From contig NZ_JAJAWG010000009.1 in the NCBI RefSeq assembly GCF_020531905.1, positions 1 to 64,000 of the forward strand: a stretch of DNA of 64,000 bases. Direction: 5' to 3'. The stretch is from Deefgea salmonis (lineage in GTDB: Bacteria > Pseudomonadota > Gammaproteobacteria > Burkholderiales > Chitinibacteraceae). The notes under the pieces were generated by a model. It saw nothing but the letters and a program-made list of their open reading frames with translations. It did not search any database and was not told the DNA's origin. Of this stretch, positions 11,016 through 24,795 are shown in pieces; position 1 is the first letter of the stretch, and each line of letters begins with the position of its first letter. Made by a program: the position numbers and the translations under genes.

Positions 11016-11091
11016 TGGCTCCTCGACCTGGGCTCGAACCAGGGACACACGGATTAACAGTCCGTTGCTCTACCAACTGAGCTATCGAGGA
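11016..11091 (-). tRNA. tRNA-Asn(GTT), copy 1
   Basis: A 76-base gene including encoded CCA. Acceptor TCCTCGA/TCGAGGA, D-arm GCTCAGTTGGTAGAGC, anticodon stem ACGGA/TCCGT around CTGTTAA with anticodon GTT, and T-arm CCTGG TTCGAGC CCAGG. It is identical in the gene body to the copy at 11150-11225 and lies 58 bases downstream of it in the same transcript. Confidence 0.98.
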
Positions 11092-11149: not shown

Positions 11150-11225
11150 TGGCTCCTCGACCTGGGCTCGAACCAGGGACACACGGATTAACAGTCCGTT
11201 GCTCTACCAACTGAGCTATCGAGGA
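11150..11225 (-). tRNA. tRNA-Asn(GTT), copy 2
   Basis: A 76-base gene including CCA, with the same cloverleaf and GTT anticodon as its neighbour. It is the promoter-proximal member of a two-tRNA operon. The pair probably raises tRNA-Asn dosage. Confidence 0.98.
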
Positions 11226-21861: not shown

Positions 21862-22290
21862 TTAGAGAGCAAGAGTTTTAGGTTCTTGCGCAGTGTGCGG
21901 ATGTTCGCCACCGGCATAAACTTTCATTTTCTTGATCATTGCGTAGCCCAATGGGCCTTTTGGTAACATGCCTTTAACAGCAAATTCCAACGCACGGCCA
22001 GGAAATTTCGTTTGCATTTCAGTGAAGGTACGCTCGTAAATACCGCCTGGGTGACCAGTGTGACGGTAATAAATCTTAGCCGTTGCTTTATCGCCAGTAA
22101 CGCGGATCTTGTCTGCGTTTACCACAACGATGTAGTCGCCGGTATCGACGTGCGGAGTGTATTCAGCTTTATGTTTGCCACGCAGGCGTTTGGCGATCTC
22201 GGCAGCGAGACGGCCCAGCACTAAGTCTGTGGCGTCCACAACGAACCACTCGCGCTTCACCTCGTGCGGCTTGGCAGAAAAGGTTTTCAT
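21862..22290 (-). CDS. rplM: 50S ribosomal protein L13
   Basis: A 142-residue protein, normal length, early-assembling on 23S r[43 protein letters not shown] and the [20 protein letters not shown] region are typical. The start at 22290 matches the family; the open frame continues to 22407 across the promoter and is not coding. It leads the rplM-rpsI operon. Confidence 0.98.
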
Positions 22291-22329: not shown

Positions 22330-22359
22330 ATTGTAGCGGGTTAAATGCCACTCTGTCAA
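22330..22359 (-). promoter_or_regulatory. rplM-rpsI promoter
   Basis: Minus strand TTGACA (22359-22354), 18-base spacer, TACAAT (22335-22330), about 40 bases before the rplM start. The -35 is a perfect consensus. GC-rich bases follow the -10, as in ribosomal promoters. Confidence 0.8.
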
Positions 22360-22390: not shown

Positions 22391-22484
22391 AAAAAAAACG
22401 CAATCAAGGCATGCCTAGATTGCGCGAAATCCTACCAAATAAATGGAGGATGGAGGAGACGACATCGAGCAAAGCCCAATGTCG
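22391..22484 (-). ncRNA. Candidate small RNA with CU-rich anti-SD motifs
   Basis: About 94 nt on the minus strand. The expected start is near 22484, seven bases after a GATAAT -10. The 5' end folds as CGACAT-GGGC-ttt-GCTC-ATGTCG (22484-22460). An unpaired stretch (22459-22444) reads TCTCCTCCATCCTCC, twice matching the anti-Shine-Dalgarno core CCTCC. The 3' end is an independent terminator: CGCAATC pairs with GATTGCG (22424-22399) and is followed by eight T (22398-22391). It lies ahead of rplM but is separated from the rplM promoter, so it is not simply a leader. No coding frame fits. This is a prediction from promoter, structure and terminator. Confidence 0.6.
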
Positions 22485-22490
22485 CCGTCG

Positions 22491-22519
22491 ATTATCACAG
22501 AAATTTAGGTGTAAGACAA
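22491..22519 (-). promoter_or_regulatory. Promoter of the small RNA candidate
   Basis: Minus strand TTGTCT (22519-22514), exact 17-base spacer, GATAAT (22496-22491). Four of six and five of six bases match the sigma-70 consensus. Confidence 0.6.
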
Positions 22520-22666
22520 CCAAGTTGTCAGCACTGCGACCAATGGTTACAAGCCAAATAGACTGGATCAATTTATACCATCGCGCCATCGCTTCGCCCG
22601 CCTTTCCCCGTTAGAATAGTGACCGATATTCCATCGTATTTCCTTAATACCAAGGACAAATGAACT

Positions 22667-23086
22667 ATGAAAGTACGCATTAAATGGGTCGAAGAAGTGA
22701 GCTTTTTGGCGCAGTCCGAATCTGGCCATGCGGTGCTAATGGATGGCCCGCCTGAAGGCGGAGGGCGTAACCTCGGGCCACGGCCGATGGAGATGCTCTT
22801 GATGGGGATGGCAGGCTGTTCTAGCTATGATGTCGTCCACATCCTTAAAAAAGGCCGTGCTGACATTAGAGACTGTGTGCTTGAGGTGGATGCCGAACGC
22901 GCTACAACCGATCCCAAGGTTTTCACCAAAATTCATTTACATTTTATTGTGACCGGCAAAGCACTAAAAACGGAAGCCGTTGAGCGGGCGATCAAATTAT
23001 CGGCCGAAAAATACTGCTCTGCGTCGATTATGCTCGGCCAAGTTGTCGCCATTACACATGATTTCAGCGTAATTGAAGCCGATTAA
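22667..23086 (+). CDS. OsmC family peroxiredoxin-like protein
   Basis: A 139-residue protein of the OsmC/Ohr fold, YhfA-like subgroup. The two redox cysteines are visible: MGMAGCSSYDVVHIL (about C51) and AEKYCSASIMLG (about C117). DGPPEGGGRNLGPRPMEMLL is the usual preceding loop. Members reduce organic peroxides; this subgroup's substrate is not established. It is transcribed alone and shares a terminator with the convergent channel gene. Confidence 0.9.
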   Translation: MKVRIKWVEEVSFLAQSESGHAVLMDGPPEGGGRNLGPRPMEMLLMGMAGCSSYDVVHILKKGRADIRDCVLEVDAERATTDPKVFTKIHLHFIVTGKALKTEAVERAIKLSAEKYCSASIMLGQVVAITHDFSVIEAD

Positions 23087-23168: not shown

Positions 23169-23975
23169 TTACGAATGCGCGGCAACTGCTTGACGGCGAA
23201 AAATCCACGCATACGGCAAGCCAATAAATAAAGCCCCACCCACAATATTACCGAGTGTTGCGGGCAATAAATTATGCAGTAAAAAATCACCCCAGCTGGC
23301 ATCTAGCCCAAGCAACATTGCTGCAGGAATAAAGAACATATTTGCAATACTATGCTCCATGCCCAGCGCAACAAATGCCATAACTGGCAACCAAATCCCC
23401 ATCATGCGACCCAGCGTATCTTTCGCTGAATAGCCCTGCCAAGCGGCAACACAAACCAAAATATTGGCCAAAACACCTTTAAAGAAGGTAACCATAAATG
23501 GATTTTCTAATTTGTGATGTGCAATAGAGAGTAAATAGAGCGTTGCAGAATCATTGGGCTTAAAGATGCCCGTCATATAGGCAAAGGCCCAAGCCGTGAA
23601 TAATGCGCCCATAAAATTACCCAAATAAGAGAGCCCCCACACTCTGGCCACTGCTCGCTTGGCCAATAAATTGCGTTGCAATGGCACCATTTGTGTTGCG
23701 CAATTACTGGTAAATAGGTCTACCCCTGTCAACACCACCGCAATAAAACCCAAAGGAAAAACCGCGCCAAATAATAATTTGCCTAAGCCAGGATTGCCCT
23801 GCATTAACTCTGGCGACCCACCAGCGACATAAACCGCGAGCAAAGCTCCCAGAGAAATAAACATACCGCCGATAATGGCCATAACCGCTAATCGTGAACA
23901 AGGCAGCGCAGACTTTTCTAAAGCACTGTGTTCTACATAATCAACAATGGCAGAAGGAGCTAACATCCCATTCAT
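23169..23975 (-). CDS. Formate/nitrite transporter family channel
   Basis: A 268-residue inner membrane protein with six hydrophobic segments and the FNT features: VLTGVDLFTSNCA before TM3 and EHSIANMFFIPAAML in the fifth half-helix. FNT pentamers conduct formate, nitrite, hydrosulfide or acetate. Which one cannot be told here, since neither pfl nor nir genes are adjacent. It could be FocA- or NirC-like. It stands alone. The upstream gap carries a 126-base inverted-repeat element. Confidence 0.9.
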   Translation of the reverse strand: MNGMLAPSAIVDYVEHSALEKSALPCSRLAVMAIIGGMFISLGALLAVYVAGGSPELMQGNPGLGKLLFGAVFPLGFIAVVLTGVDLFTSNCATQMVPLQRNLLAKRAVARVWGLSYLGNFMGALFTAWAFAYMTGIFKPNDSATLYLLSIAHHKLENPFMVTFFKGVLANILVCVAAWQGYSAKDTLGRMMGIWLPVMAFVALGMEHSIANMFFIPAAMLLGLDASWGDFLLHNLLPATLGNIVGGALFIGLPYAWIFRRQAVAAHS

Positions 23976-24156: not shown

Positions 24157-24795
24157 TCAAAAACGATAACTCAGCTGTGTCATTAACTTAGAAGTTAGCT
24201 GCATCAATTGCAGCACAGGTCGCGGCAAAGGGACTGCCCCCATTTGATCCGCCAATTCGGCATGACTCATTTCGTCTAGATACATTTGCGAAACAATGGC
24301 TCGGCTTTTTTCATCCTGTTGCGGTAGCTCAGAGAGGTGACTTTGCAAATGTGCCCCTACTTGTCGTTCAGTTTCGGCCAAAAACCCCAAATTCCATTTG
24401 TCACCGATCACCCCAGCGGCAACACCCATCGCCAATGAGCCAGCATACCACAATGGATTAAGCACACTGCGATGACTACCTAGCTCAGCCAAACGACGCT
24501 GAGTCCAAGCTAAATGCTCCACCTCCTCATCGGCGGCATGGCGTAATGCTTGCCGTGCTGCGGGGTCTCTCGCTGTCAACGCTTGCCCTTGATACAGCGC
24601 TTGCGCGCACACTTCGCCGCAGTGATTCACCCGCATCAATCCTGCTGCGTGCGCTTTTTCTGCGCTACTCATTTCTGCATCGTCAATTTTGGCATCAGGA
24701 TGCGCCCGAGCACTCACCGCAGGTGCAGCTAAAGTGCGCAACACCGTGTCAAATTCAGTAATAAATTGGTCCAAAGAAGGTAATTTCAGCATCAT
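24157..24795 (-). CDS. coq7: 3-demethoxyubiquinol 3-hydroxylase Coq7
   Basis: A 212-residue ferritin-like di-iron monooxygenase of ubiquinone synthesis, membrane-associated, hydroxylating the benzoquinol ring. Both metal-binding repeats are present: E61 in VNHCGEVCAQALYQGQAL with E91-V-E-H94 in ADEEVEHLAW, and FLAETERQVG with DEMSHAELA near the C-terminus. AAGGAG five bases before ATG-ATG supports the start. Transcribed alone, divergently from ppiA. Confidence 0.95.
   Translation of the reverse strand: MMLKLPSLDQFITEFDTVLRTLAAPAVSARAHPDAKIDDAEMSSAEKAHAAGLMRVNHCGEVCAQALYQGQALTARDPAARQALRHAADEEVEHLAWTQRRLAELGSHRSVLNPLWYAGSLAMGVAAGVIGDKWNLGFLAETERQVGAHLQSHLSELPQQDEKSRAIVSQMYLDEMSHAELADQMGAVPLPRPVLQLMQLTSKLMTQLSYRF

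What the first reader, a model, noticed from the sequence alone, without database searches (positions are those of the whole stretch)
22391..22519. Undescribed small RNA candidate with twin CCUCC motifs upstream of rplM
A -35/-10 pair with an exact 17-base spacer, a start site that coincides with a 5' hairpin (22484-22460), an unpaired stretch holding two anti-Shine-Dalgarno CCUCC cores, and a 26-base terminator stem with eight T all fit one 94-nt minus-strand RNA. It lies behind its own terminator, separate from the rplM promoter. The architecture resembles CU-rich sRNAs (for example the 'cuckoo' type with CCUCCUCCC loops) that bind ribosome-binding sites or a CsrA-like protein. Identity with a named family is not shown.
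Basis: partly seen in the sequence, partly recalled or inferred. Interest (0 to 1): 0.75.

Follow-up and report, generated by a model that had tools for sequence, protein, structure and literature searches.

The report
Divergent betaproteobacterial anti-Shine-Dalgarno small RNA
The sequence very probably encodes a small RNA that silences other genes by covering their ribosome-binding sites; it is a diverged relative of an RNA already studied in Bordetella and Burkholderia, and the comparison suggests a link with carbon-storage control that is worth testing.

Summary
Window 22391-22484 (minus) folds far better than shuffled sequence (z -6.1), and 41 of 43 genomes of the same family carry the RNA between an OsmC gene and rplM, with compensatory changes in its 5' hairpin and a nearly invariant GUCUCCUCCAUCCUCC core. 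It is not an undescribed kind but a diverged homologue of the 'Betaproteobacteria toxic sRNA' (Rfam RF02278; B. cenocepacia ncS27, B. pertussis S17). The window copy scores only 28.3 bits (cut-off 50), but 8 of 43 family genomes pass the cut-off at the same locus, and parts of a coq7-OsmC-rplM neighbourhood recur across the order. Most likely it blocks translation by pairing with ribosome-binding sites; in its genus the best conserved predicted target is a secreted GH18 chitinase (7 of 7 genomes). Two further links are proposed: Neisseria NmsR and RF02278 models cross-match, below cut-off, at the same coordinates; and a PhaR-type site lies upstream of the RNA in most relatives examined (80 of 112 named loci upstream, 6 of 108 downstream), predicting control by the polyhydroxybutyrate regulator PhaR. 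In the window that site is degenerate, and it is absent in two genera of the family. No transcript was tested.

The parts
22391..22484 (-). small RNA, about 94-96 nt (start predicted at 22483-22486)
   Evidence: fold z -6.1; present in 41 of 43 family genomes; covariation
22514..22519 (-). -35 element TTGTCT
   Evidence: a TTG-type -35 at 17-base spacing is the best promoter in 36 of 41 family loci
22491..22496 (-). -10 element GATAAT, preceded by TGT
22460..22484 (-). 5' hairpin
   Evidence: 7 of 9 aligned pairs show changes on both sides across 32 distinct sequences
22451..22460 (-). site 1, GUCUCCUCCA, anti-Shine-Dalgarno core, mostly single-stranded in the predicted fold
   Evidence: nearly invariant in 32 distinct sequences; aligned to the first positions of the RF02278 model
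22429..22451 (-). middle hairpin holding the second CCUCC
   Evidence: predicted pairing of first or second CCUCC differs between genera
22391..22425 (-). terminator stem and eight T
   Evidence: 98.6% of aligned cells paired
22530..22538 (-). degenerate PhaR-type site CGCAGTGCT (1 mismatch to YGCRNYGCR)
   Evidence: at the same place in the family: 26 of 41 exact, 34 of 41 with at most 1 mismatch, 0.55 exact expected; a stricter weight model does not find it in the window
22330..22359 (-). separate promoter of rplM
   Evidence: TTGACA-18-TACAAT, 11 of 12
21862..22290 (-). rplM (ribosomal protein L13)
   Evidence: PF00572, E 6e-43
22667..23086 (+). OsmC-like protein gene, upstream neighbour
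   Evidence: PF02566, E 1e-19
24157..24795 (-). coq7, wider neighbour
   Evidence: PF03232, E 2e-43

Best explanation
The region encodes a trans-acting small RNA, a diverged homologue of the RF02278 RNAs, at what looks like their ancestral coq7-OsmC-rplM locus. Shown by sequence: own promoter and terminator, covarying 5' hairpin, nearly invariant GUCUCCUCC, middle hairpin with a second CCUCC, terminator with U-tail. Inferred from relatives: the RNA binds Hfq; it may be cut just before the CU-rich stretch (as S17L is, and as ncS27 is reported to be); the CU-rich sites pair with ribosome-binding sites and block translation of mRNAs for carbon uptake and breakdown. In this genus a secreted GH18 chitinase is the best conserved predicted target.
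For: RF02278 is the top Rfam match (28.3 bits; E 4.7e-4 in 221 bases). At the same locus in related genomes it reaches 52.3 bits (8 of 43 over the cut-off). A model from 32 distinct RNAs of this family alone (R1) hits 192 of 399 genomes of the order at E<=0.01; RF02278 hits 213 of 399 at E<=1e-4, 143 over cut-off, 0 of 14 controls; examples of places hit by both: G137:C65, G141:C2, G304:C7, G305:C158. Synteny: rplM beside it in 35 of 48 order loci; of 120 named loci rplM in 52, coq7 in 59, OsmC in 87, none of the four genes sought in 16 (stretches of at most 8 kb). Bordetella and Achromobacter loci have it next to coq7, where S17 lies (PMC11722255, section 5). Covariation: 45 double-change cells against 9.8 in shuffles, 0/500. 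Target: the start of a GH18 + CBM5/12 chitinase carries GGAGGAGAC in 7 of 7 genus genomes; duplex energy -19.5 against a mean of -8.2 (sd 3.2, best -16.8) for 53 ATG ORF starts of the window. Relatives: S17S represses BP2158 and co-purifies with Hfq (PMC11722255, passages and section 5); ncS27 overexpression slows growth (PMC5688073, passages).
Against: The window sequence is below the Rfam cut-off, and its match is marginal in larger searches (E 0.0016 in its own genome; E 0.12 in a 57-kb scan of all families; not found at E<=1e-4). No expression data. Target enrichment is small-sample and homologous chitinases are not independent. In the own genome only 1 of 5 GGAGGAGAY matches precedes a real ORF and neither of 2 TGGAGGAGA matches does. 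One genus lacks the RNA.
Confidence: 0.85

Rival explanations
1. A cis-acting leader or attenuator of rplM that couples L13 synthesis to ribosome demand.
For: In the 41 family genomes it lies just upstream of rplM on the same strand.
Against: A terminator with eight T lies between them, and TTGACA/G of a separate rplM promoter in 41 of 41 family loci; in Bordetella-type loci the RNA lies next to coq7 with no rplM match in the stretch held (up to 6.4 kb downstream in L161), and other copies have neither neighbour.
Confidence: 0.05
2. A sponge or decoy for a protein (CsrA/RsmA-like or cold-shock protein) bound by the CU-rich stretch.
For: CU-rich motifs are conserved beyond what structure needs.
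Against: CsrA prefers GGA motifs in loops (recalled), not CU-rich ones; characterised relatives act on ribosome-binding sites. Not tested here.
Confidence: 0.07
3. Only a terminator plus chance hairpins, no functional RNA.
For: The promoter match is not above chance by itself, and the simple terminator scan found none.
Against: Nearly invariant core and covarying hairpin in 32 distinct sequences, promoter spacing kept in 36 of 41 loci, matches across the order.
Confidence: 0.02

Closest known systems
Betaproteobacteria toxic small RNA, RF02278 (B. cenocepacia ncS03, ncS05, ncS27, ncS62)
   Same: Same core, double hairpin and terminator; a Burkholderia copy lies between OsmC and rplM (L186); ncS27 is 92 nt with a processing site (PMC5688073, passages).
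   Different: The window copy scores 28.3 bits (cut-off 50) and only one blastn match exists in its genome, against three to five copies in Burkholderia; that ncS27 is the rplM-locus copy was not verified.
Bordetella pertussis S17 (S17L/S17S)
   Same: Conserved CU-rich sites in front of a terminator; located beside coq7, part of the same neighbourhood.
   Different: S17L is 190 nt with a long leader and Bvg-dependent; the Bordetella loci seen read CUCCUCCACCCUCC instead of CUCCUCCAUCCUCC.
Neisseria NmsRA/NmsRB (RF02877; NgncR_162/163, RcoF)
   Same: Three stem-loops, two anti-Shine-Dalgarno motifs, attenuated growth of E. coli (PMC5362039, passages); RF02278 and RF02877 cross-match, below cut-off, at the same coordinates.
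   Different: Two copies, in tandem in 3 of 4 genomes examined; no rplM/OsmC/Coq7/RpsI match in those loci; the window RNA scores 15.1 bits.
Sinorhizobium MmgR (RF00519)
   Same: sRNA repressed by PhaR (PMC12542648, passages), parallel to the PhaR-type site found here.
   Different: Only weak model matches to two relatives (26.1 and 24.6 bits, cut-off 41); no homology claimed.
Rhodobacter CcsR 'cuckoo' RNAs
   Same: CCUCCUCCC-like loops (recalled).
   Different: Not among the Rfam matches of the window; similarity is the motif only.

Membership tests
RF02278 Betaproteobacteria toxic sRNA | Covariance-model score at or above the gathering cut-off of 50 bits | tested here: not met
   28.3 bits for the window (absent at gathering); orthologues at the same locus reach 52.3
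RF02278 Betaproteobacteria toxic sRNA | UGUCUCCUCC core, double hairpin, terminator with U-run | tested here: met
   model positions 1-64 aligned end to end, first base differs; fold
RF02278 Betaproteobacteria toxic sRNA | Shared genomic neighbourhood (coq7-OsmC-rplM); not part of the Rfam definition | tested here: met
RF02278 Betaproteobacteria toxic sRNA | Toxic to E. coli when cloned | not testable with these tools
   bench test; S17S is reported not to impair exponential growth of E. coli
NmsR (RF02877) | Covariance-model score at or above 52 bits | tested here: not met
   15.1 bits for the window; best rplM-locus relative L092 46.2 bits
NmsR (RF02877) | Three stem-loops with two anti-SD motifs | tested here: met
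   one search compared with PMC5362039 passages
NmsR (RF02877) | Sibling pair | tested here: not met
   single blastn match in own genome
PhaR-controlled sRNA | PhaR-type site YGCRNYGCR at the promoter | tested here: inconclusive
   window 1 mismatch; 26 of 41 family loci exact at the same position; weight model negative in the window
Hfq-dependent sRNA | Co-purification with Hfq | not testable with these tools
   reported for S17S

The most novel reading that the evidence does not exclude
RF02278 RNAs and Neisseria NmsR form one ancient betaproteobacterial sRNA superfamily, seated outside Neisseria at a coq7-OsmC-rplM locus where its promoter is an operator of PhaR, the regulator that senses polyhydroxybutyrate granules. 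When the cell begins to store carbon, PhaR is drawn to the granules, the RNA is released, and it shuts down extracellular polymer breakdown and nutrient uptake. It would be the betaproteobacterial counterpart of Sinorhizobium MmgR. (Odds lowered from 0.4 to 0.35 on checking: other CU-rich sRNA families also cross-match weakly, and two genera of the family lack the site.)
Probability: 0.35. Interest if true: 0.7.

Novelty: new member of a known kind. Interest (0 to 1): 0.45.

Why it matters
It extends a published regulatory RNA to a family where Rfam misses most copies: 33 of the 41 genomes that carry it, the window included, fall below the cut-off. It may join two Rfam families studied apart. 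It also offers a concrete answer to a stated gap: the ncS27 authors wrote that what regulates the accumulation of sRNAs in B. cenocepacia is yet unknown (PMC5688073, passages). A PhaR operator predicts that the RNA changes with carbon storage, testable in one deletion strain.

Tried and rejected
Off-locus RF02278 matches in family genomes (20-30 bits): 12 were read; none holds the twin core, though three (L062, L063, L065) have CUCCUCC before a terminator and may be other anti-SD RNAs. The relaxed RF02278 search (E<=1) is not discriminating: it rings in 43 of 43 family genomes but also in 8 of 14 controls, so presence was decided by reading the loci. A cis role for rplM was rejected (own terminator, separate rplM promoter). 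A 'cuckoo' or CsrA role found no support.

Targets: TGGAGGAGA before ATG gave 24 sites in 8 genomes (reversed pattern: 2), 15 of them with an ORF over 100 aa; 7 of 15 carry carbohydrate-active or carbohydrate-binding domains (GH18, GH5, LPMO10, CBM5/12, CBM56), against 2 of 16 such ORFs for a control Shine-Dalgarno pattern with 20 sites (L328 of the 16 was not scanned). Both sets also hold one solute-binding transport protein (L310, L333). Suggestive only; no test statistic was computed.

PhaR: a weight model trained outside the family gave no site in the window's subclade (L001-L004, scores -4.5 to 1.5) nor in genera g3 and g10 (L032, L038, L039, L042, L052, L058, scores -5.5 to 4.0), although these genomes have PhaR. 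In one search the ORF picker took other frames than the phasin or phaR frame in several misses, so 20 of 30 phasin and 8 of 12 phaR loci are probably minimum counts; these 42 are only the loci fetched, not every match. My first synteny and motif counts used 80 of the 120 named loci held; one search repeats them on 120. The 8 order loci identical upstream to a named locus show that the sets overlap. One search held one stray pair and was repeated without it.

Full report
Observation. The 94-nt minus-strand sequence folds at -38.5 kcal/mol, z -6.1 against 200 shuffles, into a 5' hairpin, a short single-stranded CU-rich stretch, a middle hairpin and a terminator. By itself the promoter match is not beyond chance and the simple terminator scan found none, so conservation had to decide.

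Conservation. A blastn search found it in 39 of 43 genomes of the family; adding the RF02278 search and reading the loci, 41 of 43 have it. The relaxed RF02278 search alone would not show this, since it also rings in 8 of 14 control genomes. The family loci with the core have OsmC upstream and rplM downstream. The two remaining genomes, both of genus g5, keep OsmC and rplM but lack the core. Across 32 distinct sequences the core GUCUCCUCCAUCCUCC is nearly invariant, while 7 of 9 pairs of the 5' hairpin show changes on both sides; 45 double-change cells against 9.8 in shuffles, 0 of 500, and slid controls reach at most 12. Fold z-scores of the 32 run from -3.1 to -9.1 (50 shuffles each). The best TTG-type promoter has a 17-base spacer in 36 of 41 loci.

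Identity. The best Rfam match is RF02278, Betaproteobacteria toxic small RNA: 28.3 bits, full length, below the cut-off of 50. Its E-value is 4.7e-4 for 221 bases, 0.0016 for the own genome and 0.12 in a 57-kb scan of all families, so the window sequence alone is marginal. Orthologues at the same locus pass the cut-off in 8 of 43 family genomes. A model made from this family alone (R1) finds matches in 192 of 399 genomes of the order (E<=0.01); RF02278 finds 213 of 399 (E<=1e-4), 143 over cut-off, none in 14 controls. Several listed places are the same (G137:C65, G141:C2, G304:C7, G305:C158). Bordetella and Achromobacter loci have the RNA beside coq7, where S17 was mapped (PMC11722255, section 5); a Burkholderia species has it upstream of rplM (L186). 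The window has coq7 1.1 kb beyond OsmC, with a formate/nitrite transporter between. I conclude that the window RNA is a diverged orthologue, although it fails the formal Rfam cut-off.

Mechanism. Relatives act on ribosome-binding sites: S17S represses the sigma-54 activator BP2158 and co-purifies with Hfq (PMC11722255, passages and section 5); ncS27 overexpression slows growth and its predicted targets are transport and carbon metabolism (PMC5688073, passages); NmsR represses TCA-cycle mRNAs through anti-SD motifs (PMC5362039, passages). Kimelman 2012 and Sass 2019 were seen only as references. In the window's genus the site 1 complement GGAGGAGAC sits before the start of a GH18 + CBM5/12 chitinase in 7 of 7 genomes (three of the seven proteins scanned with Pfam, a fourth, the other three share the N-terminus). 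Predicted duplex energy is -19.5 kcal/mol for the window's genome against a mean of -8.2 (sd 3.2, n 53, best -16.8) for ATG starts of ORFs of at least 150 codons in the window. This is prediction, not proof.

Possible bridge to NmsR. RF02278 hits two sites in each of 4 of 4 genomes of one genus (31.6-36.4 bits; 1 of 14 controls also rings at this threshold); the pair is about 200-260 bases apart in three genomes and 4 kb apart on opposite strands in the fourth. In Rfam these sites are NmsRb (77-107 bits). R1 also aligns to them over its full length (21-28 bits in 15 kb), but in the whole-genome search no genome of that genus reached E<=0.01. In reverse, among 19 loci scanned the NmsRb model matches six RF02278-type RNAs at the same coordinates, all below its cut-off of 52: L092 46.2 bits (E 4.7e-4), L101 41.3, L105 37.8, L117 35.5, L016 33.1, L033 30.6. 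Against: other CU-rich sRNA families cross-match too (ncS54 29.4 bits on L092; SorY 32.5 and anti-hemB 32.2 on L117), and the neighbours of the Neisseria-type RNAs differ, so convergence cannot be excluded. Sass and colleagues noted structural similarity to NmsR (PMC5688073). I found no statement of homology in term searches of PMC11722255, PMC5362039, PMC9973317 and PMC13104608 or among the papers listed (20 of 46; 12 of 118).

PhaR-type site. Upstream of the RNA lies TGCRNYGCA, the centre of the PhaR palindrome deduced for R. eutropha (PMC12849132, passages) and a special case of the centre of the S. meliloti PhaR motif (PMC12542648, passages). In 170 nt upstream against 170 nt downstream: named loci 80 of 112 against 6 of 108 (8 of 120 dropped for short upstream); order loci 27 of 47 against 3 of 47 (1 dropped, no core) and family loci 14 of 41 against 0 of 41. 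Shuffles predict 1.3-2.3 per set (80 named loci). The sets overlap in part and relatives are not independent. With YGCRNYGCR at 78-91 nt before the core, 26 of 41 family loci match, 0.55 expected. The same motif stands before at least 20 of 30 phasin and 8 of 12 phaR loci fetched from this family, the window organism's phasin included; all 43 genomes match the PhaR and phasin Pfam families. The reported -35 of S17L, TTGCAT, is the start of the motif TTGCATCGCACAAA in a Bordetella locus (L147). Against: in the window and three close relatives the site is degenerate, and six loci of genera g3 and g10 have none. PhaR represses the sRNA MmgR in Sinorhizobium, a precedent. I found no paper that links PhaR to RF02278 RNAs among those listed in searches (15 of 658; 15 of 68; 20 of 46); the words PhaR and polyhydroxy do not occur in the main texts of PMC5688073 and PMC11722255.

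Verdict. Very probably a functional small RNA of a known kind; the window copy itself is ordinary, while the comparison yields two testable links.

Noticed in passing
window 11019-11091 and 11153-11225, minus strand: Two tRNA genes with equal Rfam scores side by side.
   Followed up: no
L205 (record titled Klebsiella pneumoniae MAG): The contig carries a coq7-OsmC-sRNA-rplM locus of betaproteobacterial type, so the bin looks mislabelled or contaminated.
   Followed up: no
L062 about 980-1085 and L063 about 1035-1140: The genus without the rplM-locus RNA carries, in both genomes, another CUCCUCC element with a terminator (28.0 bits to RF02278); perhaps a relocated or different anti-SD RNA.
   Followed up: partly
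L065 (G038:C1:2554059-2554110): GUCUCCUCC before a terminator away from rplM (30.2 bits to RF02278); a possible paralogue.
   Followed up: no
own genome G000:C21:151414-151469 (L073): A second weak RF02278-like site (23.1 bits), with matches of the same score in two close relatives; possibly just a terminator.
   Followed up: no
window 23169-23975: A formate/nitrite transporter gene sits between OsmC and coq7.
   Followed up: no
L101, L117: Weak matches of the mmgR family RF00519 (26.1 and 24.6 bits, cut-off 41) over the RF02278-type RNA.
   Followed up: no
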